Source of the DNA: a virus
DNA length: 48,627 bases
Strand: one strand, 5' to 3'
Virus record (IMG/VR): IMGVR_UViG_3300025707_000011
Coordinates: 1-48,627 of that record
A program made the position numbers and the translations under genes. Positions 24,276 through 36,935 of the stretch are shown here, in pieces. Below the pieces are notes generated by a model that searched no databases, was not told the origin of the DNA, and saw nothing but the letters and a program-made list of their open reading frames with translations. Positions within the stretch are counted from its first letter, which is position 1, and the number at the start of each line of letters is the position of its first letter.

Positions 24276-26120
24276 ATGAGTTTTTTAGTAACAGGTATAG
24301 GTGTAGGGCTAACTGCTATTGCAGGGGGCATTAAATACGGAAGCGCAAGAAAAGCTGAGCTAAAAGCTAATAAAGCTAGTAATAAAGCAGCAGATCAAGC
24401 GAATCTTAAAAATGCAGAGTTAGCTGCAAGAGAAAGAAGAAGTTTTGTTCCAGGGTTTGGGGATAGTGATAATATCCCTGGATATACTAATGATATGATG
24501 GGACCTCAGCCAGGATCAGCTGGAATAATGAGAAGCCGTGAAGGTGGGGGAATTTATACTACTGGTAACTATGGCGGAGGTGGTTTTCAAGGATTGAATC
24601 CTTATAAAAATCCTGCAGGTTTTTATGGGGATGATGATAGTGGGCTTGGTGCACCAAGGAATGAAATAAAATTTGATCCAGCTGGAAACATGATATTTAA
24701 TGAAGCCGCTATAACTCGTAGTGTACAAAAAAAGTTAACAGCAAATAAAGAATTTATGAAATACACCCAAGGCTTACCTAGATCAGAAGATGATAAACCA
24801 ATATTTCCAGATCCAAATACTGCGGCTGGTAGTAAATTTTATAAGCAATTACCAAAGTCTGTGGCGGCAATGGCCGGAAACCCTAAATTTGCGCAAATGT
24901 ATAAAGGTAGTAATATAGTAAACCCTTATGCTAACATACAAGATTTAAGTGCTGTATTAGAAGATGTAAGTGATATATATCAAGATAGAACTGGTTTATT
25001 AAAAGATAGAAGTGATATGTTTAGAGGCACTGCTGAATTAGGAGTAGACTTAAGTGACCAAGAAGATTTATCAAAAAGATTTGGAGACTTAACAACAGGT
25101 ATGGAAGACTTAAGTGGTAGAGTTGCTGATCTTAGACAAGGGGCACAAGACTACTCAGGGTTAGCTACAGACTCTAGTATATTAGCATCTAACCCATATG
25201 CAAATTTGCAAGTAGCCACACAAGCGGCTGACTTAAAAGCACAACAATCAGATCAAGCACTTGCTAATACACTGTCAACAATTAGAGCTACGGGAGCCGG
25301 CGCGGGTGGTGCTACAGCAATTGCACAAGCAGCACTTCAAAGTAAACTTGGGATTGCGGCTACTATAGAACAGCAAGAAACTCGTAATGTTCAAGCAAGA
25401 GCAGAGGGACAACAACAAATAGAGCAAATAAGAATGAGTGAGTCTCAAAGACTTCAAAATATTTCTTTAACAGAAAAATTAAGATTAGAAAGTTTAAGAC
25501 AAACAGAGGGTCGTAGAATAGATGAAACAAAATTAACTGAAGGCCGAACATTAAGACAATTAGGATTAGAAGAAGGGAGAAGTTTAAGACAATTAGAAGT
25601 AGACGAAGGGCGAGCATTAAGAGGTTTAGCTGTTTCTGAAGGCCAAAGAATGCAAGGTCTAGGAATTTCAGATAGATTAAGAGAACAAGAACTGCAACAA
25701 GGTGAATCTCTTAGATTACAAAACGCTGAATTTAACGAAGCACAAAGGCTACAAGATATGGATTATAACGAAGCAATTAGGATTCAAAGTGCTAGGTTTA
25801 ATGAGCAGCAAAGGCTTCAAGAGGCTGATTCAATGGCTAGAGAATATCAATTTAGAGTTGCTGAAACTCGTGAACAAAATAGGCTTAATAGATTACATAA
25901 CATGGCAACCCAAGCTGTACAAACTTCAGCTGATTTAGAAGCTAGTAAAATTGCCGCAAAAGCACAAAGACAAGGCGCATTAGTAGGGGCAATAGGTGGG
26001 GTTGCATCTGCGGTAGTATCGGCAGTACCAACAAAAGCAGCTACAAGCGCAGCTACAGGGTCGTCATCAGACTTTAGCAAATTTCTTATCGCGCAAAAAC
26101 CAGAACTTGGACCTAATTAA
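24276..26120 (+). CDS. internal virion / DNA ejection protein with 11-residue repeats
   Basis: The protein has 614 residues. It opens with a hydrophobic helix (LVTGIGVGLTAIAGGI) as in T7 gp14-type ejection proteins. Residues about 330-370 hold the Ala/Gly/Gln-rich core common to marine-phage internal proteins (TIRATGAGAGGATAIAQAAL, then LGIAATIEQQETRNVQARAE). Residues 388-519 are twelve exact-length 11-residue repeats. The C-terminus has a second hydrophobic stretch (GALVGAIGGVASAVVSAVP). This suggests a protein stored inside the head or tail and ejected into the envelope to make a channel. It is followed by another helical protein and the giant protein, an order like T7 genes 14-15-16. It has no similarity that I can cite to a characterised protein. 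Confidence 0.7.
   Translation: MSFLVTGIGVGLTAIAGGIKYGSARKAELKANKASNKAADQANLKNAELAARERRSFVPGFGDSDNIPGYTNDMMGPQPGSAGIMRSREGGGIYTTGNYGGGGFQGLNPYKNPAGFYGDDDSGLGAPRNEIKFDPAGNMIFNEAAITRSVQKKLTANKEFMKYTQGLPRSEDDKPIFPDPNTAAGSKFYKQLPKSVAAMAGNPKFAQMYKGSNIVNPYANIQDLSAVLEDVSDIYQDRTGLLKDRSDMFRGTAELGVDLSDQEDLSKRFGDLTTGMEDLSGRVADLRQGAQDYSGLATDSSILASNPYANLQVATQAADLKAQQSDQALANTLSTIRATGAGAGGATAIAQAALQSKLGIAATIEQQETRNVQARAEGQQQIEQIRMSESQRLQNISLTEKLRLESLRQTEGRRIDETKLTEGRTLRQLGLEEGRSLRQLEVDEGRALRGLAVSEGQRMQGLGISDRLREQELQQGESLRLQNAEFNEAQRLQDMDYNEAIRIQSARFNEQQRLQEADSMAREYQFRVAETREQNRLNRLHNMATQAVQTSADLEASKIAAKAQRQGALVGAIGGVASAVVSAVPTKAATSAATGSSSDFSKFLIAQKPELGPN
25437..25832 (+). repeat. twelve tandem 33-bp (11-residue) degenerate repeats
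   Basis: The 396 bases encode twelve consecutive 11-residue units with no insertions or deletions. Examples in order are TEGRTLRQLGL, EEGRSLRQLEV, DEGRALRGLAV, SEGQRMQGLGI, GESLRLQNAEF, NEAQRLQDMDY and NEAIRIQSARF. Position 2 is nearly always Glu, position 6 is usually Leu/Met/Ile, and position 11 is usually hydrophobic. An 11-residue period is that of right-handed (hendecad) coiled coils. The DNA copies are diverged, so this is an old repeat. Confidence 0.85.
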
Positions 26121-26135
26121 AAAATAATTAAAACA

Positions 26136-28004
26136 ATGGCATTACCAAAATTTACAACAACTCCAACACCGCTGTATCAGCAGCAGCCGATAATTAGAAC
26201 ACAAAACTATGGGGATTTATATATGCGAAACTTTGCAGCAGCAGAGGCAAGTACATATAAAACATTTGCCGGTATAGGTGTAGCTTTAGAGAAGAAAAGA
26301 GAAAAAAGAGAGAAAGAATTAGAATTAGAATTAGAAAGAGATTCTATAAAATGGAAAGCTAAAAGCCAAGGCAGAAAAGACCGAGACTATGCAGAGGTTA
26401 TAGATAGATTAAAAACATTAAATGCACAAACAGAAGGTAGCGAAGGTGGGGATGTAACTAGTAAAGTATATAGTGAATTACAAAGGATGCGAGATGGGGT
26501 ATCTGCTTTACCACAACAAATAAGAGATGGGTTAATTACAAGAGACGATGCACAAGTAATTGAAGATTCATATAATGTAGCTATAGGCACCTATAAACCA
26601 GCTTTACAGGTTTTAGATACATTTAAAACTAGGTTAAGAGATAAAAGCCGTGGGCATTTATTAGATAATTATACAAAAGGTTTAAAAGATGGTAATTTTA
26701 AGGCAGCAAGTCTTGCACATGAATTAGAAGATAAAGATGGTTATGATTTAAAATTTAGCCTAGGCGGTAGTAATGGATTACAACCTATAGTATCATGGAC
26801 AGATGATACAAAAAAAGATGATGATGGAAAATTTCTGGAATATGAATATACTTTAACAGAATTAAAAGATATAGATTTTTTTAATGATTGGGATGAAGAG
26901 TTTAATTATGAGAATGAGGATTATAAAAAAACACAAACCGTTATAAATGAAGAATTACAAAAAAATCCTGATTTTATAGAGGCCTCAAAACCACCGCCAT
27001 ATTTTACAAGTACGGTAAAGGATGATTATTCTACAGGAGTCAAGAGGACAGGAAAAGAAACTCGCCAAGAAAGAAGCATGGGGAATTATAATAGAATGAG
27101 GAAAGAATATGCAAAAGAATGGTTAAAATTGAATCCAGGAAATTCATATGAAAAATGGAAACAATTTCAAGATATTATAGTTATAGGTGCACCTGAAGAT
27201 GAATATTATGATATAGCAATGGAAATAGTATCACAAAATCCAGACCAATATAAAAGTACAGCAGATGGGGATGAAGACGGAATCCCCGATAATGTAGAAG
27301 AGCTTATAAGAGTAATTGGTAGTTTTAATACCTGGGAAGATGGATGGGAACAGGAAAAAGATAATATAAATGTAATGCGTGAATTTGATAGGATTTTAAG
27401 TAAAGATTCATTTAAAAATTTCTATGCAAATCAAACATATGGTAGAACAAATAAAGCATATAATTCATGGGATAAAGCGCCAACATTCCAAGAAGGTTTA
27501 ACTACAAATTTAACAGATATTCAAGAGAATAAGAAACGTAATTTAGAAACAATTAATTATTTACCTACAATAATAAAAATGATTGATAATACTTTAAACA
27601 GAGATCCTGCGCTTGCTAATATGGCGTCGTATAATGAAATGAAAACTACAATAATTAATAATTTTCCACATATGAAAGATGTTTTGAAGACAAAAGACGC
27701 GGTATGGGGGACTTTAGGTGATGCTGATGTCTCAACTGCAACTGATATATCGATGGGTGAAGTTAATATTCCGGTTAATGCTCCCCCGGGAATAATAAAC
27801 GATAAGAAGAGGGATATACTTACGAGAATAATCGAAAACGACCCAGCTTTTGCAGGAATGGAATTTGATAATGTAAAATTCTGGAAAGGATACAAATTTA
27901 GTGAAATGGACTTTTTAAGTGAAGAATCAGAGAAAGCTGTACAATATTATACAAATTGGCTAAAAAAAGCAGCTTTGCCTTGGGAAGAAGCTAAATTACC
28001 TTAA
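26136..28004 (+). CDS. putative internal virion protein, unknown function
   Basis: The protein has 622 residues, is mostly helical, charged and soluble. Residues about 48-75 are a Lys/Arg/Glu-rich helix (EKKREKREKELELELERDSI). Around residue 377 the stretch DGDEDGIPDNVEELI has the D-x-D-x-D-G-x-x-D-x-x-E/D spacing of a calcium-binding loop of the thrombospondin type 3 or dockerin kind. No membrane segment or hydrolase motif is visible. Its place between the repeat-bearing ejection protein and the giant protein suggests a T7 gp15-like member of the ejected complex. The leader is AATAATTAAAACA with no Shine-Dalgarno sequence. Confidence 0.55.
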   Translation: MALPKFTTTPTPLYQQQPIIRTQNYGDLYMRNFAAAEASTYKTFAGIGVALEKKREKREKELELELERDSIKWKAKSQGRKDRDYAEVIDRLKTLNAQTEGSEGGDVTSKVYSELQRMRDGVSALPQQIRDGLITRDDAQVIEDSYNVAIGTYKPALQVLDTFKTRLRDKSRGHLLDNYTKGLKDGNFKAASLAHELEDKDGYDLKFSLGGSNGLQPIVSWTDDTKKDDDGKFLEYEYTLTELKDIDFFNDWDEEFNYENEDYKKTQTVINEELQKNPDFIEASKPPPYFTSTVKDDYSTGVKRTGKETRQERSMGNYNRMRKEYAKEWLKLNPGNSYEKWKQFQDIIVIGAPEDEYYDIAMEIVSQNPDQYKSTADGDEDGIPDNVEELIRVIGSFNTWEDGWEQEKDNINVMREFDRILSKDSFKNFYANQTYGRTNKAYNSWDKAPTFQEGLTTNLTDIQENKKRNLETINYLPTIIKMIDNTLNRDPALANMASYNEMKTTIINNFPHMKDVLKTKDAVWGTLGDADVSTATDISMGEVNIPVNAPPGIINDKKRDILTRIIENDPAFAGMEFDNVKFWKGYKFSEMDFLSEESEKAVQYYTNWLKKAALPWEEAKLP

Positions 28005-28042: not shown

Positions 28043-31000
28043 ATGGAAGAAATCTATATACACAATGGTAATGAATTTTCAAGAGCTCAGGTTGAGGACG
28101 CTGCTTTTGAAAAAGGTATAACCGTTGAAGAGTACTTAGCAAAATATGGGGTAACTCTTAAAGATCAAGTCCCTGAGCCAGAGCCAGAGCCAGAGCTAGA
28201 GCCACAGAAAAAACCTACACTCGACTTGGAAGCGGTGGGAAAGAAGGGGGGTGTTGCAGGTCAGACGGTTGCAGATGTAACACCGGAAGTAAGTGCAACA
28301 GATACGGATTTACTATCGGAAGATACTTTATCGGAATCACAAAAATTTGTAACTGCTGATTTATTCTCAGAAAATGAAGAAGAAGTTGCAAAGGAACTTA
28401 ATGGACTCCTTGCTACTTATGGGGGATATATAAAAGAAAGTGGGGTTTTTCAAAATGGTATAGAAGTACTCATAGGGGAGGAGCCTACTTTTGAGGGGAA
28501 ATTTGTACATGGTGAGGAACAATATCTACCTAGATCAGGGAAGCTAATGACTGGGAAGAAAACTACTCCTGAGCAAAGAGAAGAGAACGCAAGGATTTTA
28601 AATTCTTTTTTAGCAACCTATGGTGATAAGGGTTATTTAGATAGCGCTCTCGCTGATGGCGAAACCATGGAAATGGTAAATGATTTTAAAAACAAAGCAA
28701 CGGTGCCTGCTTCGGGACTTACTAATGAGCAAATAATGTTTGATGTGTTTGAAAAATTCGAGCACTATGTAGATCGTGAAAATTCTATAATAGAATTAGA
28801 ACAGAAAGAAAGGGTAGGATTTATGACTGATGAACAATTAACAAACGAATTAGAAGCGGCAAAAAAAGCAGTTTCAAAGCAACTTGTTTTTAAAGATGAA
28901 AAGGAAGAGGAGCGTTATAAAAAATTTAAGGAAGGTGGTGTTATACCGGATTTTACAGAAGAAGAATACGAGGAAATGAGGCATGAAAAAAAATGGAAGA
29001 AGTATGATGAAGTAGCGAGGGATTATTCGTATGACTTATCTCAAGAAGAAAGAAATAAGATGCATGCTGTACTTTGGTCAGAGAAAAACGAGGTAGATAA
29101 AACAAGAAAAAAATTTGAAACAGATGTTGATGAGCATGTAAAAAAAACTGATACATTAGAAAAAAGAATACAGGATTATAAAGATAATCCAACTTCATAC
29201 GAACTATATAAGGAAGTAAAAGAACTTCAACTAGCCTTTATAGAAGAATCCAACAGATTACAAGAACAACAAATTATTTTACAAAGAGAGTTAAAAGAAA
29301 CAGAATTTTTGCCAATAGCAATAAAAGATTTTGGATCTAATTATAGAAGATTACAACAGTTAGGCACATCTTTTAAATCTTTAGGTACAGATATAGCATA
29401 CTCTATATTACAAATAGGACAACTTACAGGATTTGGCCAACCTGCTGCTGCTGTTCATGCCGTATCTAAGTGGTCATTAACCCCTGAACAAAGAAATAAA
29501 GCGCTTGATGAATCAACAGGTATAATTACTATGCGCGAAAGAATGAATGTAGAAACAGAATCTTATCAAAGATCAATTGGGGTTGATGAAATAAAAACTC
29601 TTAGTGATCTTGGCAGATGGACCGCTAGTTCTACTACTAATTTAATACCATCTTTAGCAATGGCTTTTACTGGGCCTGCTGCATTACCTTTATTTGCATT
29701 ATCTGGATGGGGTTCTGCTGGAACAGATGTAGCAATTAAACAAAAGAATGCAGCTGAAAGAATGATTGTAAATAAAAAAGAATTAGTAGAAAACCCTGAT
29801 ATGGATATGATTAGAAAAGTTGAGCTTGAAAATCAAATGGATGAAGATTCTAAAATTCTTAAAATATCAAATTGGGAACAGTTAAGTTTACAGGCATTAT
29901 ATGGAGTATCTGAAGTAGTATTTGAAAGACTAGGTACAATGTCATTAATAAAAGGGGCTAGGGCAGCAATAAGATCTTTACCCCCAGCAACTGTAAAAGA
30001 AGGCTTTGAATTTGCCGGAAAACAACTTTTTAAAGGTATTACAGTAGAAGGAGGTTCAGAATTTGGTACCACAATTGCTCAAAATTTTGGGGATATATAT
30101 ATTTTAGGGGAAGATAAAAATATTTTTGAAGACAGTTTAGAATCATTTGCACAAGGGGCTTTAATGGGAGCTGGAATTACGAGTGTAGCTGGGGGTAGAG
30201 CAATAAAGCATACTATATCAAGTGAATTAGCCACTAGAGCAGAAGATAGAAGAATGAGAGAAATAGTTATTCAATTAAGAGAATTAACTGGTATAACATC
30301 TTTACAAAATATTCCTGATGGTAATATAAAAATGCCTAATCAAAGTCCTGAAGTACAAACATTAATTGCAGAACTAACCCAAGAAAAAGAAAATATTACA
30401 AATGACATAATTGCTAAATTAGATAATGGCGATATAAGTATTCAACAGGCATATGAAATAGGGGGGATAAACAGAGAATTACGTAAAATTGGGGAAAGGT
30501 ATAATGCGTTAATGCATGATAAGAATTTATCACCTCAACAATTAGAAGCTGCTGAAAAAGAACTTGGGCAACAATATGAAGCCTTAAAAGAAAAAAGAGA
30601 GAATATATTAACAGACCCTAGTATATTAAAAGAAAATCAAGATTTAGCAATTAATGATAATATACGAAAAGACTGGGAGATGGGGAATAGTATGTATAGC
30701 ATGAGAATGTCTAATAATACTGCACTTAATCTTCTTGACCAATGGGGAGGACTTAATAATAGTGTAAAGCAAGGGTATTATGAAGAAGCTAAAAAAGCTT
30801 TAAGAAAAGGTGCTGAAAAATATAAAAGATTTTCAGAAAAAGAAATACAAGATAAAGCAGTAGAGCTTTATATTGAAAAAAGTTATAGGAGAAAAATTGA
30901 AGAAGGTGAGAGAAACGCTAGAACCTATGCTACTACAAGAGGAGAAGATTTAAATATATACAAAGGAGAAACCATAGAAGAAACAATAGGTTTAATGAAA

Positions 31001-34000
31001 ACCCACGGGGTTATGGAATCAATAGCTGAATCCTTGAAAAAACAAATATTAGAAGAAGGTGGAAAACCTCCATCAATGGAAGAATTATTGCGGATAGCTG
31101 AAACAAAGGCAAGAGCAGATATTAAAAATGGGATTTATGAAGCTAGTAATACTGGAGATAATATAATAGTACATATGCCAAATGCAATAAAAAATGGTAG
31201 AACCGGGATATTTGCTCATGAAGTATTACATAGTATAGCTAAGAAAAAATATGGCAGTGAAGCGGGCCTTAAGCAAGCGGGTATGGATTTATTAGATTAT
31301 TTGGAAGAAAATGATAAAGATTTATATACGTTAGTTAAACATAGAATCGACCAAAGTTATGTGAAAAGAGACCCAAAAACAAGGGAGGTAATGAAAGATG
31401 AAAAGGGTAAAACATTAAAAGAAGATGCTTATTGGGAAGAAGCAATGAACGCTATGTCAGATATTATAGCTGATGGGCAAGCTATTAAAACAAGTTCTTT
31501 AAATACAATAAGAAGATTTGTAAATAAATTATTACCTGATAATTTTAAATTTAAAGAAACAGACCAAGAAGCTGTTTTTAATTTTATAAAAGATTTTAAT
31601 AAAGAAGCACATTTTGGAAAAAAACCTATAAAGTTTGAAGATGTTTTAGGTATAGCAAAACCCGAAGATGAAGGTAAAACAACTACCCTTAAAGATGAAG
31701 ATGAAGAAGCACCTAGTACTAAATTTAGTAAAACTATAAACGAATCATATAATACCCTTACAGCTGAACAGCTTAAAACTATTAAATCTTTAAAAAGTAA
31801 AGACGCGCTTAAAGAACTTGCTGATAAAGATAATACCCTTACAGCGAAACTTAAAGAACTTGCCCAGGAAGGCAAAGGTAAAACTAAAGAATTTACAGAT
31901 TTAAACTCGCAATTAAATAAAATAAAAGATACAAAGGATGCTTGGTTTAGTGTTCAGGAATCTATACGACCTTTAGTTACAGGTTTAGTTAATAATAAAT
32001 ACTTCAAAGCTTTTAAAACCATGGACAAAAAAGAAGCGGAAGAGAAGAAAAGGGATATAATAGAAAATACGCTTACAAATCAGGTATTAAATTTAGTACA
32101 AAAATATGACCCTTCAAAGATAAAAGGCGGTGAAAGTACATTACATGGGTATTTAATGCAAAAATTAAATAGATTTGATGCTACAGGAAAAAGAATGTCT
32201 TTAATAGAGGTTAAAGTAATAGGTGAGGCAAATAAAGTGGGCCTTGATATTTCAAAAGATGTAGACGAAACAAAACAAACTATTGAACAACCTGAAATTG
32301 AAAAAGGCAAAGAAAGTGTAAAGAAAAAATTGTTTACGAAAAAATTAGATTTTGATAAAGAAGCAATAGAAGGGGAATTTAAAGTCGATAAAGATGGTAA
32401 AAAAGTTCCTAAGACATTTGCTGATATTTTTATCGATGCTGTAGCTAAAACATTCGGTACAAAATTACCAGCGGTAACTAATAAGAATTTTGTTAAAGTA
32501 TTTAGTAAAAATAATATAGCTGAATTAATGCCTTTTGTTAGAAGTTTTACAAAAATAGATCGTAAAAAAGGAATAGATAAGTTTAAACCTTTTGTTATTA
32601 AACATTTCAAAGCTATATTAGATCAATTACCAGCTAGTGTTATTAATAAAAAATATGACATGCTGCGTAAACCTGTTTTAAAAGAATCTGGTCAGCAAAA
32701 AAGAGAAGAAACTAAAGAAGGTAAAGGGGAATTTGAATATTTAAACATAGATAGAAAAGATTTTGTAGATTATTTTACTAATCCTAATCCTAATGTAATT
32801 GCAACTGTAGCAGGAAAAATAACTATTAAAGATAAAAATGGAGATGTAAAAACATATAGAATTGTAAAACCAAAAAAAGGAGAAACATTAGGGGAAAATG
32901 AAATTGATGGAACTCGATATATAGGTAAAAGAATTGGGGACACAGTTATAGTAAAAGGAGAAGAAGTACAACTTACTAATATTGAAATAGCAAGTAACAC
33001 ATTAAGTGATAGAAGAACATCGTTATTAGAAACTTTAATTAATGAATTATCCGCCGATGCAGCATTAGAAGTTGTTAAAGATAAAACAATAATGCAGAAG
33101 TTTAGGGATATTCAAGAAATTGAGGGTCAAGCGGTACCTGATAATTTCCTTGATGTTATTGTTGAAAAACTTGACAGAGGAATAGATTACTTAAATAACT
33201 TGCAAAAAAATAATGGTGAGTTATACGCAAGGCTAGGTCTACCTGAAATAATAGTACAAGCTATTAAGGTGTTTATGCAAACACTAAGTACTACTTTAAA
33301 AGCAACAAATAATTTTGGGAAAGCTTTAAAAGCTGGTATAAAAGCAGCGCAAAATCTTTTTGAAACAAAAGATGAAAAAGATATAATTAAAAAAGTTCTT
33401 GAAGAGACTTTTACTAGCGCTAAAAGTATAACCAAAGAAAAAATAGAATCAGCAGTAGAAAAAAGCGATCGTGTATTATTTACAAATGCTGGGCAAAAAA
33501 TTATTGATTCTGAAATCACTAGAATTAAAGGGCTTAAAGGTAGGACTAAATTACAAGCTACTAAAGATTTTATTAAACACATATTACCTTCTTATATTAA
33601 CAATGAACATTTAAAAAAGATAACTGGAAGTAGTAATGAACAGGCGTTTAATTATTTAAATAAGCCACTCGGACTAAAAGAGAATGGTTTTGATGTAGAA
33701 AAAGTGGGTAATAAAACAAGTATAGTTCATTATGCTAAAGATGGTACAAAAACTTCATTTAGACCCTTAGCTGATACAAGACCCTCTACTATAAACGGAA
33801 AATATTTAGCTAAAAAGTATAAGACTGTTGATGATTTTTTATCAAATTTAAATGATAATAGGTATGATATAGATAAACAATCTAAAGATTCAGCTAATGC
33901 TGTCGTTAGAGAAGTAAGCAGGATAGCCGCTACAGGAGATATACAAGGGGCTAAAGATTTATTAATGATTCTAGGTGAATATAGTGACTCTATATTAAGA

Positions 34001-36472
34001 TTAGCGGGTAAATTAAGAGACATCGAAACTAATCTAGAAGTTAAACGTAATAAAGACGGCACACTTAAACGTGATAAAAAAAATAAAAATAAAGTTATTT
34101 CAGGTATTACATATGAACATACTTTAACTATTAAGAATTTAAGAACACAAATAGAAGCTTTATTAGATGTTTATGAAAAAGATGGTAATTTAAATAAACT
34201 CGAAAAAAATATGGAAGGTGTATTAAATAGGAGCTATGTTGATTTGATTGATAAAAAATGGAAAAGTAAGATGGACACTACCGAAACGCCTAAAGATTTA
34301 CAACCCAGTGATGATAGTAGAGTTAGGCTTAAAAAAGCAGGTATAAAAACTACACCTATTTTTAGTGAAACTAAATTTAGTAAAACAAATAATAGCACCG
34401 AGCTTAATGAAATGATAGAAAGGACTAAAGGTATTCCAGCAAAAGAAAGAATTTCAATAGCAAAAGCTAAAATAGAAGGTTTTAAATCAGATAAGTTCCA
34501 ACTTTTTATGCGAAATTCAGCTGAAGATTTATTAGGTTTATTATATCAGTTTGCTGGTAAAAAAGAACAAGGAAATGCAGATTTAAAATGGATTAAAGAA
34601 ACTTTTACAAGGCCTTTAACAAGAGCTAATTTAGAATTTGAAGCACACCAAATTAAATCACATAAAACTTTACAAGAAGCGAAAGTTTTAATGGGTGAAC
34701 AAAAAATTGATTTAACAGCAGAAGTTATAGATGGTTATACAGTAGAACAAGCTATTAGAGTACATCTTTGGACTAAAAGAGGGTATGTTGTTCCAGGTAT
34801 GGATGAATTCACAGGTACAAAGAAAAGAACAAAACCTGGTCCTGAACAAGAAAAAGTAAATAAGTGGGTCAGACAAAATTTTGATTCATTAGAATTTACT
34901 GACGCTATTGAGGAAGCGTATTTTAGGGATGATAAAAAATATCCAGAACCAAATGAAGATTGGGTATCAGGGACTCTTACAACTGATTTATTAGAACATA
35001 CTAATGAGGTAACTAGAGCTGAAATATTCCAGCCATTCTTTGATAATGTAAATGTGGTGTTCGGAAAATTTGATAAATATCATGGTAAATTATCTGGGGT
35101 AAATGTAAACAAAGTAAGAGGTATTTATGGTAATAGTTTTGTTGAAGCATTAGAAAGTTCTTTTTATAGAATTGGTACAGGTAGAAATAGGAGTTTCCAA
35201 TTAGATGAGCAAGGTACTGGAATACTTGATTGGGTAAATAATGCTATTGGTAATACGATGTTTATTCACACTAGATCAGCTTTACTTCAAACAATATCAT
35301 CGGTAAACTTTATTAACCTAGGAGACAACAACCCTATAGCTGCGGCAAAAGCATTTAAGAACCAACCAAAATTTTGGGGTTACTTTAATAAAATATTCTT
35401 TTCAGATTATTTAAAACAAAGAAGAGCAGGTTTAAGAACAGATGTTAACGAACAAGAAATAGCGTCTGCTGCTTCAAATTCTAAAAATCCAACAAGAGCA
35501 GTAATAGCTACAATATTAAAGAGAGGGTTTTGGCCTACACAAATGGCTGATAGTTTTGCTATTGCTTTTGGAGGATCCTCGTTTTTAAGTAACAGAGAGG
35601 CTAAATACAAAAAAGACGGGTTGTCTGACCAAGACGCTTTTGATCAAGCTTTTGAAGACATGCGTGAAATTGCAGAAGACACACAACAATCAGGTAGACC
35701 TGAAAAAATATCGCAAGAACAGGCTGGGTTTGGAGGAAGGCTTATATTAGCTTTTCAAAATACCCCAATGCAGTACAACAGACAAATAAAAAAAGCATTC
35801 TTAGATTTAAAAAACGGAAGAGGTGATTGGAAAACTAATGTTATGAAAATATCTAATTATTTAATTATTCAAAATGTTATATTCCACTCCATGCAACAAG
35901 CTTTATTTGCTATTTTATTTGATGAGCCGGAAAATGACAAAGAAGAGAAAAGAGAAAAAACCAGAAAAATAAGAGTGATGAACGGTATGGCTGATTCTGT
36001 ATTAAGAGGTACCGGTGTATTTGGGGCATTACTAGCTACTGTAAAAAATACAATAATGAAAATTGTTGAAAGAGAGGGTTTTGATGAGAAAGCAATTGAA
36101 GAAATATTTAATATGTCGCCGCCTATTGGTAGGAAGACAAGACAATTATTTGATATGAAAGATAGGTTTACATATAAACAAAATCTTAAGAAAATGAAAG
36201 AAATGGGTCTTGATACGGAAAATCCTGCTGTATTAGCCGCAGCAGATGCACTTTCTTTTGGTATTAACTTACCAGCTGATAGAGTTCTAAGGAAAATTAA
36301 TAACATAAAAGCCGCTTCAGATAAAGAAAATGAAATGTGGCAAAGAATGGCATTGTCACTTGGTTGGAGTAAATGGGAGGTTAATATTCCGTTTGAAGAC
36401 GCAAAAGATACTGATTATGTTCAAAAACCTAAAAAAAATAAACCAAGAGCGAATAAACCTAGAAAAAATTAA
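28043..36472 (+). CDS. giant virion-associated polyprotein-like protein with HExxH metalloprotease motif
   Basis: The protein has 2809 residues. The N-terminal 40 residues (EFSRAQVEDAAFEKGITVEE) form a small helical domain I associate with large marine-phage virion proteins; a Pro-Glu repeat follows at about residue 45. Hydrophobic segments lie near residues 535-560 (LIPSLAMAFTGPAALPLFAL). A zinc metalloprotease motif HEVLH is at 1059-1063 in the context GIFAHEVLHSIAKKKYG, with a downstream YWEEAMNAMSDII near 1129-1141 that could supply the third ligand. The same motif TKFSKT occurs at 1226 and 2110. The C-terminal 450 residues are well structured, with RSALLQTISSVNFINLGDNN, TQMADSFAIAFGGSSFLSN and LILAFQNTPMQYNRQIKKAF. 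It is likely packaged and injected, combining gp16-like channel functions with enzymes as in the phage 'polyvalent proteins'. No RNA polymerase DxDxD motif was seen. Confidence 0.7.
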   Translation: MEEIYIHNGNEFSRAQVEDAAFEKGITVEEYLAKYGVTLKDQVPEPEPEPELEPQKKPTLDLEAVGKKGGVAGQTVADVTPEVSATDTDLLSEDTLSESQKFVTADLFSENEEEVAKELNGLLATYGGYIKESGVFQNGIEVLIGEEPTFEGKFVHGEEQYLPRSGKLMTGKKTTPEQREENARILNSFLATYGDKGYLDSALADGETMEMVNDFKNKATVPASGLTNEQIMFDVFEKFEHYVDRENSIIELEQKERVGFMTDEQLTNELEAAKKAVSKQLVFKDEKEEERYKKFKEGGVIPDFTEEEYEEMRHEKKWKKYDEVARDYSYDLSQEERNKMHAVLWSEKNEVDKTRKKFETDVDEHVKKTDTLEKRIQDYKDNPTSYELYKEVKELQLAFIEESNRLQEQQIILQRELKETEFLPIAIKDFGSNYRRLQQLGTSFKSLGTDIAYSILQIGQLTGFGQPAAAVHAVSKWSLTPEQRNKALDESTGIITMRERMNVETESYQRSIGVDEIKTLSDLGRWTASSTTNLIPSLAMAFTGPAALPLFALSGWGSAGTDVAIKQKNAAERMIVNKKELVENPDMDMIRKVELENQMDEDSKILKISNWEQLSLQALYGVSEVVFERLGTMSLIKGARAAIRSLPPATVKEGFEFAGKQLFKGITVEGGSEFGTTIAQNFGDIYILGEDKNIFEDSLESFAQGALMGAGITSVAGGRAIKHTISSELATRAEDRRMREIVIQLRELTGITSLQNIPDGNIKMPNQSPEVQTLIAELTQEKENITNDIIAKLDNGDISIQQAYEIGGINRELRKIGERYNALMHDKNLSPQQLEAAEKELGQQYEALKEKRENILTDPSILKENQDLAINDNIRKDWEMGNSMYSMRMSNNTALNLLDQWGGLNNSVKQGYYEEAKKALRKGAEKYKRFSEKEIQDKAVELYIEKSYRRKIEEGERNARTYATTRGEDLNIYKGETIEETIGLMKTHGVMESIAESLKKQILEEGGKPPSMEELLRIAETKARADIKNGIYEASNTGDNIIVHMPNAIKNGRTGIFAHEVLHSIAKKKYGSEAGLKQAGMDLLDYLEENDKDLYTLVKHRIDQSYVKRDPKTREVMKDEKGKTLKEDAYWEEAMNAMSDIIADGQAIKTSSLNTIRRFVNKLLPDNFKFKETDQEAVFNFIKDFNKEAHFGKKPIKFEDVLGIAKPEDEGKTTTLKDEDEEAPSTKFSKTINESYNTLTAEQLKTIKSLKSKDALKELADKDNTLTAKLKELAQEGKGKTKEFTDLNSQLNKIKDTKDAWFSVQESIRPLVTGLVNNKYFKAFKTMDKKEAEEKKRDIIENTLTNQVLNLVQKYDPSKIKGGESTLHGYLMQKLNRFDATGKRMSLIEVKVIGEANKVGLDISKDVDETKQTIEQPEIEKGKESVKKKLFTKKLDFDKEAIEGEFKVDKDGKKVPKTFADIFIDAVAKTFGTKLPAVTNKNFVKVFSKNNIAELMPFVRSFTKIDRKKGIDKFKPFVIKHFKAILDQLPASVINKKYDMLRKPVLKESGQQKREETKEGKGEFEYLNIDRKDFVDYFTNPNPNVIATVAGKITIKDKNGDVKTYRIVKPKKGETLGENEIDGTRYIGKRIGDTVIVKGEEVQLTNIEIASNTLSDRRTSLLETLINELSADAALEVVKDKTIMQKFRDIQEIEGQAVPDNFLDVIVEKLDRGIDYLNNLQKNNGELYARLGLPEIIVQAIKVFMQTLSTTLKATNNFGKALKAGIKAAQNLFETKDEKDIIKKVLEETFTSAKSITKEKIESAVEKSDRVLFTNAGQKIIDSEITRIKGLKGRTKLQATKDFIKHILPSYINNEHLKKITGSSNEQAFNYLNKPLGLKENGFDVEKVGNKTSIVHYAKDGTKTSFRPLADTRPSTINGKYLAKKYKTVDDFLSNLNDNRYDIDKQSKDSANAVVREVSRIAATGDIQGAKDLLMILGEYSDSILRLAGKLRDIETNLEVKRNKDGTLKRDKKNKNKVISGITYEHTLTIKNLRTQIEALLDVYEKDGNLNKLEKNMEGVLNRSYVDLIDKKWKSKMDTTETPKDLQPSDDSRVRLKKAGIKTTPIFSETKFSKTNNSTELNEMIERTKGIPAKERISIAKAKIEGFKSDKFQLFMRNSAEDLLGLLYQFAGKKEQGNADLKWIKETFTRPLTRANLEFEAHQIKSHKTLQEAKVLMGEQKIDLTAEVIDGYTVEQAIRVHLWTKRGYVVPGMDEFTGTKKRTKPGPEQEKVNKWVRQNFDSLEFTDAIEEAYFRDDKKYPEPNEDWVSGTLTTDLLEHTNEVTRAEIFQPFFDNVNVVFGKFDKYHGKLSGVNVNKVRGIYGNSFVEALESSFYRIGTGRNRSFQLDEQGTGILDWVNNAIGNTMFIHTRSALLQTISSVNFINLGDNNPIAAAKAFKNQPKFWGYFNKIFFSDYLKQRRAGLRTDVNEQEIASAASNSKNPTRAVIATILKRGFWPTQMADSFAIAFGGSSFLSNREAKYKKDGLSDQDAFDQAFEDMREIAEDTQQSGRPEKISQEQAGFGGRLILAFQNTPMQYNRQIKKAFLDLKNGRGDWKTNVMKISNYLIIQNVIFHSMQQALFAILFDEPENDKEEKREKTRKIRVMNGMADSVLRGTGVFGALLATVKNTIMKIVEREGFDEKAIEEIFNMSPPIGRKTRQLFDMKDRFTYKQNLKKMKEMGLDTENPAVLAAADALSFGINLPADRVLRKINNIKAASDKENEMWQRMALSLGWSKWEVNIPFEDAKDTDYVQKPKKNKPRANKPRKN
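28175..28206 (+). repeat. GAGCCA hexanucleotide repeat (Pro-Glu linker)
   Basis: About five GAGCCA-like units in tandem, one altered to GAGCTA, encode PEPEPEPELEPQ after the small N-terminal domain of the giant protein. The six-base unit keeps the frame if its number changes, so linker length could vary between strains. Confidence 0.7.
31718..31734 (+). repeat. 17-bp direct repeat, copy 1 (encodes TKFSKT)
   Basis: The sequence ACTAAATTTAGTAAAAC occurs here and again, identically, at 34370-34386 in the same reading frame of the giant gene, 2652 bases apart. Both copies encode TKFSKT (residues 1226 and 2110) in Ser/Thr/Asn-rich, probably flexible surroundings. They divide the protein into parts of about 1226, 884 and 700 residues. 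Confidence 0.7.
34370..34386 (+). repeat. 17-bp direct repeat, copy 2 (encodes TKFSKT)
   Basis: This is identical to 31718-31734 and in the same frame. The surrounding residues are PIFSETKFSKTNNSTELNE, a likely linker. See the finding on possible processing sites. Confidence 0.7.
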
Positions 36473-36473
36473 T

Positions 36474-36935
36474 ATGGAAAGGATTAGTGAACATATATCA
36501 TACAGAGAAGCTACTAAATCTAATACAGCGATGAGATTAGATATAGATAATACACCAGGGCTTTATGAGATAACTAATATGAATGGGGTTGCACATAATA
36601 TATTTGAACCATTAAGAGAATGGGTTGGTGGACCAATAAAAATTAATTCTTTTTATAGATCTGTTGCTTTGAATAAAGCTATAGGTGGAAGTTCTAGATC
36701 ACAGCATTGTGAAGGTAGAGCTATGGATATTGATGATACATTTAGATACAAGACTAACGCTGAGATGTATGAATATATAAAAGAAAACTTAAACTTTGAT
36801 CAAATGATTTGGGAATTTGGTACAGATAAAAACCCTGATTGGGTACATATAAGTTATGTATCTGAAGAACAAAATAGAAATAGATGTTTAAAAGCCACAA
36901 GAGTCAATGGAAAAGCAATGTATAGCATTATATAA
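36474..36935 (+). CDS. endolysin, peptidase M15 family (peptidoglycan endopeptidase)
   Basis: The protein has 153 residues from the ATG two bases after the stop of the giant gene; a longer reading from 36330 would overlap that gene by 143 bases and is unlikely. It shows the M15 (VanY / D-Ala-D-Ala carboxypeptidase-like) zinc site: SQHCEGRAMDID with H78 and D85, and WVHISY with H125. Arg in SFYRS (R62) and E114 before the last motif fit the substrate and catalytic positions of the family. Such enzymes cut peptide stems of peptidoglycan and act as endolysins in phages. There is no signal peptide, so it needs a holin or another release route. It overlaps the following lipoprotein gene by 29 bases, which forms a small lysis cassette. 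Confidence 0.88.
   Translation: MERISEHISYREATKSNTAMRLDIDNTPGLYEITNMNGVAHNIFEPLREWVGGPIKINSFYRSVALNKAIGGSSRSQHCEGRAMDIDDTFRYKTNAEMYEYIKENLNFDQMIWEFGTDKNPDWVHISYVSEEQNRNRCLKATRVNGKAMYSII

What the first reader, a model, noticed from the sequence alone, without database searches (positions are those of the whole stretch)
28043..36472. 2809-residue protein with an HExxH protease core and a phage-conserved C-terminal domain
The sequence shows HEVLH at residues 1059-1063 with a downstream WEEAMNAM acid, a membrane-like segment near 535-560 and a distinct C-terminal region. In a short-tailed phage the position equals that of T7 gp16. An ejected protein that carries a metalloprotease could act on the host envelope or proteins at entry, or process itself. 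The combination is known in principle for phage polyvalent proteins, but this architecture is not one I can name.
Basis: partly seen in the sequence, partly recalled or inferred. Interest (0 to 1): 0.65.

Follow-up and report, generated by a model that had tools for sequence, protein, structure and literature searches.

The report
Giant phage entry protein with protease
This 2809-residue protein of an uncultured flavobacterial-type phage belongs to a large, previously uncatalogued family of giant proteins, probably injected into the host ahead of the viral DNA, nearly all of which carry one built-in zinc protease that most likely cuts the giant protein itself or host proteins.

Summary
ORF 28043-36472 (+) encodes 2809 aa with one HExxH (HEVLH, 1059-1063), the named acid (YWEEAMNAM) and a hydrophobic segment (533-556). 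A DNA pattern from its C-terminus (FQNTPMQY) found 119 viral stretches, all in frame. Of 46 long family members, 45 carry exactly one HExxH (0.42 expected over all). In 47 aligned regions, 12-31% identical to this one, only H1059, E1060, H1063 and E1133 are invariant; E1133 was not selected for. AlphaFold (pLDDT 81) puts HEVLH on one helix behind a strand pair and E1133 on a second helix: a zincin layout. The gene is third in a tight small/medium/giant cassette after the portal-capsid genes, as in T7 gp14-15-16 and N4 gp52-51-50. Its membrane-like module recurs in 'structural' giants of four cultured flavophage groups. Pfam, PHROGs and NCBIfam have no convincing match for protease or C-terminus; T7 gp16 and N4 vRNAP are not detectable homologues. 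Best reading: an ejected pilot protein with an internal zincin peptidase, probably self-processing; host-protein cleavage is the rival. Protease domains in phage polyvalent proteins are known, so this is a new variant of a known kind. Activity, virion presence and cleavage are unproven.

The parts
28043..36472 (+). giant ORF, 2809 aa (P0001): third gene of the putative ejection cassette
   Evidence: 100% nt-identical copy on IMGVR_UViG_3300025676_000033 (L001)
29450..30262 (+). membrane-like module, residues 470-740; the most widely shared part of the protein
   Evidence: its profile hits giants of phi38:1 (4.7e-28), elemo (2.9e-23), Gundel (1.2e-22) and phi13:2 (5.7e-20); hhalign probabilities 95-97%; G544 and E669 invariant in 35 sequences
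29639..29710 (+). hydrophobic segment, residues 533-556
   Evidence: highest 19-residue mean hydropathy in the protein, 1.55
30950..31612 (+). zincin-like metallopeptidase domain, approx. residues 970-1190
   Evidence: A1 alignment of 47 sequences; AlphaFold strands 970-975, 1030-1035, 1038-1044, active-site helix 1056-1070, second helix 1127-1143
31217..31231 (+). HEVLH (residues 1059-1063): two predicted zinc-binding His and the catalytic Glu
31439..31441 (+). E1133 (second E of YWEEAMNAM): predicted third zinc ligand
   Evidence: only invariant column outside HExxH in 47 sequences
31718..31732 (+). TKFSK linker just after the protease domain (residues 1226-1230), possible processing site
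   Evidence: FS[KR] enriched right after the protease in the family, 9 observed vs 1.0 expected; function is inference
31733..34369 (+). variable middle region (about residues 1231-2109); in relatives it holds HAD-like, zeta-toxin/AAA-kinase and other domains; nothing recognised here
34370..34384 (+). second TKFSK linker just before the conserved C-terminal block (residues 2110-2114)
34388..36469 (+). conserved all-helical C-terminal block (residues 2116-2809) of unknown fold
   Evidence: A2, 64 sequences, 34-58% identity, 51 invariant columns; AlphaFold pLDDT 83.8, pTM 0.82; no PDB match at E <= 0.5
35753..35776 (+). FQNTPMQY signature (residues 2571-2578)
24276..26120 (+). first gene of the cassette (614 aa): Gly-rich hydrophobic N-terminus, relative of the ~220-aa gene that precedes the giant in other members
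   Evidence: family profile hits it at iE 2.2e-25; sequence
26136..28004 (+). second gene of the cassette (622 aa), in the position of T7 gp15 / N4 gp51
   Evidence: position and size; the profile of this gene family does not match T7 gp15 or N4 gp51

Best explanation
The gene encodes a giant pilot (ejection) protein of a short-tailed, flavophage-type virus. It is probably packaged in the head with the products of the two genes before it, threads out ahead of the DNA, inserts through its membrane-like module (residues 470-740), and carries a zincin peptidase (HExxH...E, residues about 970-1190) with it. Most likely that peptidase cuts the giant polypeptide itself, either in the head or after entry, freeing the variable middle cargo and the helical C-terminal block as separate units. 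Shown here: the ORF, the conserved H-E-H-E set, the predicted zincin topology, the conserved C-terminal block, the cassette order. Inferred: packaging and ejection, zinc binding, catalysis, self-cleavage. Sub-probabilities: active zincin-type peptidase 0.85; ejected virion protein 0.85; self-processing as the main task 0.5.
For: Conservation: 45 of 46 long members have exactly one HExxH, 0.42 expected. Only H1059, E1060, H1063 and E1133 are invariant in 47 sequences; the best downstream column in eight shuffled controls reached 55-87%. AlphaFold: strands, active-site helix with HEVLH, second helix with E1133. Position: in nearly all loci where both upstream genes are on the contig, the giant is third after a Gly-rich gene of about 160-300 aa and a gene of about 320-640 aa, gaps mostly 0-20 nt; T7 and N4 have the same small-medium-giant order. 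Relatives at this position are annotated structural or virion structural proteins in elemo, phi38:1, phi13:2 and Gundel and share the membrane-like module. Variable cargo between protease and C-terminus: HAD-like DFDDT in 56 of 84, zeta-toxin/AAA kinase in 4 of 46; SLT and glucosaminidase N-terminally in one member each. FS[KR] linkers are enriched at module borders. Precedents: P1 DdrB is processed and its MPTase is the proposed agent (PMC5512222); the N4 vRNAP has an HExxH subdomain followed by a helical C2 without known homologues (PMC12633501).
Against: No solved zincin matches at E <= 0.001; the best, human MATCAP (a zinc peptidase by general knowledge), has E 0.09 and TM below 0.2. N4 vRNAP, with an MPTase domain, is packaged uncleaved (PMC5512222). 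Some members and relatives lack the motif: L065 and L092 in this family, phi38:1 gp101 and phi13:2 gp127 outside it. FSK is not the top tripeptide in the post-protease window. In P0001 no cargo domain is recognised, so what would be released is unclear. No virion proteome of this phage exists.
Confidence: 0.55

Rival explanations
1. Same ejected protein, but the peptidase is an effector that cuts host proteins (envelope, cytoplasmic or defence) just after entry; the giant protein is not its own substrate.
For: Zincins act as effectors in other conflict systems, and the polyvalent-protein paper lists this option (PMC5512222). The domain is kept in members with and without HAD cargo and is very divergent (12-31% identity to P0001), as expected for a host-facing enzyme.
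Against: Divergence also fits self-processing. No host target or cleavage data.
Confidence: 0.25
2. The peptidase acts in the periplasm during entry, clearing envelope proteins in the way that the T7 gp16 transglycosylase clears peptidoglycan.
For: An N-terminal SLT domain and a glucosaminidase domain each occur once, so the family can carry wall-cutting enzymes; the protease lies next after the membrane-like module.
Against: At most 2 of 35 members carry such domains, and they lie N-terminal of the protease. Nothing places the protease in the periplasm.
Confidence: 0.1
3. The zincin fold is a structural or regulatory relic without proteolytic activity.
For: N4 vRNAP carries HExxH yet is packaged uncleaved (PMC5512222); some relatives lack the motif.
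Against: H, E, H and E are invariant while nearly everything else has drifted.
Confidence: 0.09
4. The HExxH is a chance motif in a helical structural protein.
For: T7 gp16 shows such a motif (HERLH at 559) in a protein not known as a protease.
Against: 45 observed against 0.42 expected, a conserved third ligand and predicted zincin topology.
Confidence: 0.01

Closest known systems
Flavobacterium phage elemo giant 'structural protein' (MT497075 gp1, 3667 aa)
   Same: same genomic position, same membrane-like module (2.9e-23), homologous peptidase with HEIFH (7e-11; hhalign 96%)
   Different: C-terminal block not detectable; much longer middle region
Tenacibaculum phage Gundel gp74 (2482 aa, Pachyviridae)
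   Same: same cassette position, membrane-like module (1.2e-22), part of the C-terminal block (2e-11), an HEFGH motif
   Different: its peptidase region matches A1 only weakly (hhalign 42%)
Cellulophaga phage phi38:1 gp101 and phi13:2 gp127
   Same: giant last gene of the structural module, same membrane-like module, annotated structural proteins
   Different: no HExxH and no C-terminal block
N4 virion RNA polymerase gp50 (3500 aa)
   Same: small-medium-giant order; N-terminal likely membrane-spanning domain, HExxH subdomain C1 and large helical C2 without known homologues (PMC12633501)
   Different: carries an RNA polymerase, not recognised here; peptidase and C-terminal profiles give no significant match
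crAss001 cargo proteins gp45-gp46-gp47
   Same: three consecutive genes ending in a giant; all three found in virions by mass spectrometry (PMC10172136); gp47 (2341 aa) shows HEAFH with EENMAE downstream
   Different: HExxH lies near the C-terminus of gp47; no significant profile match; first-gene similarity to gp45 only suggestive (7.4e-5; hhalign 36%)
Zincin-like MPTases of polyvalent proteins (Iyer et al. 2017, PMC5512222)
   Same: HExxH helix plus Glu on the next conserved helix, strands before it, phage late genes, multidomain giants
   Different: one widespread phage clade has His at the end of strand 2 and Asp three residues after HExxH; this family mostly has Asn there (33 of 47; P0001 itself has His) and no conserved Asp; whether it falls in one of their 12 clades could not be tested

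Membership tests
Zincin (gluzincin-type) metallopeptidase | HExxH on one helix | tested here: met
   HEVLH inside helix 1056-1070
Zincin (gluzincin-type) metallopeptidase | third ligand, Glu on a following helix | tested here: met
   E1133 invariant in 47 sequences, helix 1127-1143
Zincin (gluzincin-type) metallopeptidase | three-stranded sheet before the active-site helix | tested here: inconclusive
   three strands predicted, 970-975, 1030-1035, 1038-1044; their pairing was not seen, no coordinates
Zincin (gluzincin-type) metallopeptidase | significant structural or sequence match to a solved zincin | tested here: inconclusive
   best PDB hits are MATCAP chains, E 0.09-0.26; M48 and snapalysin at E 0.34-2 by sequence
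Zincin (gluzincin-type) metallopeptidase | zinc binding and proteolysis | not testable with these tools
   needs the expressed protein
Polyvalent protein (phage type) | several unrelated enzymatic domains in one polypeptide | tested here: inconclusive
   met for the family (zeta-toxin kinase, HAD-like, SLT, glucosaminidase); in P0001 only the peptidase is recognised
Polyvalent protein (phage type) | late/virion gene neighbourhood | tested here: met
   follows terminase, portal and virion structural genes
Polyvalent protein (phage type) | delivered into the cell with the genome | not testable with these tools
   inferred from position only
T7 gp16-type ejection protein | third gene of a small-medium-giant cassette | tested here: met
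   (in the window itself the first gene is enlarged to 614 aa)
T7 gp16-type ejection protein | membrane-spanning segments | tested here: inconclusive
   hydropathy peaks at 533-556, 2607-2626, 2657-2675; hydropathy only
T7 gp16-type ejection protein | sequence homology to T7 gp16 | tested here: not met
   peptidase, C-terminal and membrane-module profiles: hhalign probability below 1%
T7 gp16-type ejection protein | N-terminal transglycosylase | tested here: not met
   no Pfam hit in P0001; one SLT among 35 N-terminal regions; P22 gp16 also lacks it (PMC8954989)
N4-type virion RNA polymerase | T7-like RNA polymerase domain | tested here: not met
   no Pfam match in P0001 or in 46 middle regions; a very divergent one cannot be excluded

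The most novel reading that the evidence does not exclude
The giant pilot is a self-dismantling polyprotein: the repeated FS[KR] linkers at module borders (after the protease, before the HAD-like cargo, before the C-terminal block) are cut by its own zincin during entry, so that one injected chain becomes a membrane anchor, exchangeable effectors and a helical hub.
Probability: 0.2. Interest if true: 0.75.

Novelty: new variant of a known kind. Interest (0 to 1): 0.52.

Why it matters
A family found in over a hundred environmental phage contigs has no convincing model in Pfam, PHROGs or NCBIfam. It joins a pilot-protein position, a near-universal peptidase, swappable cargo and a conserved C-terminal block of unknown fold. 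It gives a testable case for an open question: what the HExxH domains in giant injected phage proteins, including the N4 polymerase, actually do. Cultured relatives (elemo, Gundel) exist, so the test can be done on isolates.

Tried and rejected
Pfam, PHROGs and NCBIfam scans of the protein and of family alignments: nothing convincing for the peptidase or the C-terminus; scattered Pfam hits such as PF19067 in 17 of 64 C-terminal regions were not followed. The weak thermolysin hit (0.13) lies at 1739-1783, away from HEVLH, and was discarded. Single-sequence tblastn reached only elemo; the DNA pattern opened the family. Homology to T7 gp16, N4 gp50 and crAss001 gp47 was tested and not found for peptidase or C-terminus; a weak match of the membrane module to the N4 N-terminal domain (2.5e-5 in a 28-protein set) has a high composition bias, fails hhalign and was not used. 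Gene splits in L012 and L076 look like frameshifts (overlaps of about 10-22 nt) and were set aside. FSK as cleavage site: enriched at borders but not the top tripeptide, so kept only as a lead. No virion proteomics for these giants was found in the held papers searched.

Full report
What is there. The frame 28043-36472 (+) is open and encodes 2809 residues. HEVLH at 1059-1063 is its only HExxH; composition alone would give about 0.027. YWEEAMNAM starts at 1130 and the strongest hydrophobic stretch is 533-556. The window is an IMG/VR record. An 8430-nt identical copy lies on IMGVR_UViG_3300025676_000033. No record in the phage collection matches the DNA in a megablast search.

The phage. The large terminase matches Flavobacterium elemo phages (46%), Cellulophaga phages of the phi13:2 and phi38:1 types (35-37%), Gundel (32%) and an environmental podovirus, ctfjg026 (61%). 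The window runs terminase, portal, virion structural genes, a 1789-aa virion protein, adhesin-like genes, then 614 aa, 622 aa and the 2809-aa giant. An M15 endolysin gene follows, whose first ATG lies inside the end of the giant gene; nucleotide-metabolism and replication genes lie beyond on the other strand.

The family. All read the motif in frame, nearly all inside long ORFs. ORFs closed at both ends on their contigs are mostly 2100-3330 aa. Selection was by this motif only, so family size is a lower bound and more distant members are missed. Four bacterial-genome contigs also carry relatives, three in Bacteroidota bins and one in a Maricaulis bin; binned contigs are weak host evidence.

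The peptidase. Of 46 ORFs with more than 1950 residues before FQNTPMQY, 45 contain exactly one HExxH; 0.42 are expected in all of them together. The distance to FQNTPMQY is 1351-2298, median 1626. In 47 aligned regions, 12-31% identical to P0001, the only invariant columns are H1059, E1060, H1063 and E1133. HExxH was used to choose the rows; E1133 was not. In eight controls with shuffled downstream sequence the best column reached 55-87%, so E1133 stands out, though the control is small. D or E at 1140 (45 of 47) and Asn at 1044 (33 of 47; P0001 has His) are further marks. AlphaFold on this alignment (mean pLDDT 80.6, mostly above 90 up to the active-site helix) gives strands 970-975, 1030-1035 and 1038-1044, a helix 1056-1070 with HEVLH, and a helix 1127-1143 with E1133. 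That is the zincin order described for polyvalent-protein peptidases (PMC5512222). Foldseek found no PDB match at E <= 0.001; the top five rows are all MATCAP chains, E 0.09-0.26, with poor superposition. In the viral library one uncultured-virus protein matched at 5e-5, and weaker rows include MuF-type, ART-PolyVal and zincin proteins.

The C-terminal block. Residues 2116-2809 align over 64 sequences at 34-58% identity with 51 invariant columns. AlphaFold gives an almost all-helical model (pLDDT 83.8, pTM 0.82) without a PDB match better than E 0.5; the weak rows are mostly transporters. A membrane-associated helical fold is possible but unproven.

Modules in between. The membrane-like module (470-740) is the most widely shared part: phi38:1 gp101, elemo gp1, Gundel gp74 and phi13:2 gp127 match at 5e-28 to 6e-20 (hhalign 95-97%). 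phi38:1 and phi13:2 lack HExxH, so the peptidase is not universal beyond this family. Between peptidase and C-terminus the family carries swappable cargo: a HAD-like DFDDT signature in 56 of 84 and zeta-toxin/AAA kinase in 4 of 46. N-terminal SLT and glucosaminidase domains occur once each. L071, the closest relative over the C-terminus (58%), has a stretch that looks like a restriction-endonuclease core by eye (not tested). P0001 has no recognised cargo.

Position. In nearly all loci where both upstream genes are on the contig, the giant follows a Gly-rich gene of about 160-300 aa and a gene of about 320-640 aa, with gaps mostly of 0-20 nt. T7 (196, 747, 1318 aa) and N4 (150, 644, 3500 aa) show the same order. 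The first gene is homologous to phi38:1 gp99 and Gundel gp72 (hhalign 95%) and perhaps to crAss001 gp45 (36%). crAss001 gp45, gp46 and gp47 were found in virions (PMC10172136). No homology to T7 gp14, gp15 or gp16 was detected, so this works like, but is not shown to be, a T7 gp16 relative.

Linkers. FS[KR] is enriched: 123 against 47 in shuffles over whole proteins, 9 against 1.0 just after the peptidase, 13 against 0.84 just before the C-terminal block, 50 against 15.7 in between. The C-terminal border is one homologous site, some matches lie inside folded domains, and FSK is not the top tripeptide after the peptidase. P0001 has TKFSKT at both ends of its variable region. These may be self-cleavage sites; that is inference.

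Mechanism and verdict. I commit to an ejected pilot protein carrying an active zincin that most likely processes its own chain. Host-protein cleavage is the main rival, and N4 vRNAP, packaged uncleaved despite its MPTase (PMC5512222), is the main caution. Peptidase domains in giant phage proteins were predicted in 2017 (PMC5512222), so this is a new variant of a known kind. The new points are the large unlisted family, the invariant H-E-H-E set, the conserved C-terminal block and the cassette context.

Noticed in passing
family middle regions, e.g. L038, L064, L100: A HAD-like phosphatase signature (DFDDT ... LTARP ... FADDA) sits just before the conserved C-terminal block in 56 of 84 family members but not in the window protein.
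   Followed up: partly
L009, L058, L059, L060, L107, L121: Walker A motifs (FMVGGPGSGKS type) in the variable region; Pfam finds zeta-toxin or AAA kinase in four of 46 scanned middle regions.
   Followed up: partly
L071 7424-9706: By eye, a restriction-endonuclease-like stretch in the variable region of the closest relative over the C-terminus.
   Followed up: no
crAss001 gp47, residues 2157-2161 (L134): HEAFH followed by EENMAE in a 2341-aa protein found in virions by mass spectrometry and annotated as a putative RNA-polymerase subunit; looks like another zincin site.
   Followed up: partly
MW202828.1 741-12320 (L125): The 3859-aa counterpart in podovirus ctfjg026, annotated 'reticulocyte binding/rhoptry protein', carries two HEFGH motifs; both regions match the A1 profile.
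   Followed up: partly
window 36330-36935: M15-peptidase endolysin gene whose first ATG lies inside the end of the giant gene; similar genes in 22 family loci.
   Followed up: partly
L065, L092: Two related family members of about 2280 aa without any HExxH.
   Followed up: partly
L012, L076: Giant gene split into frames overlapping by about 10-22 nt; frameshift, sequencing error or true split.
   Followed up: no
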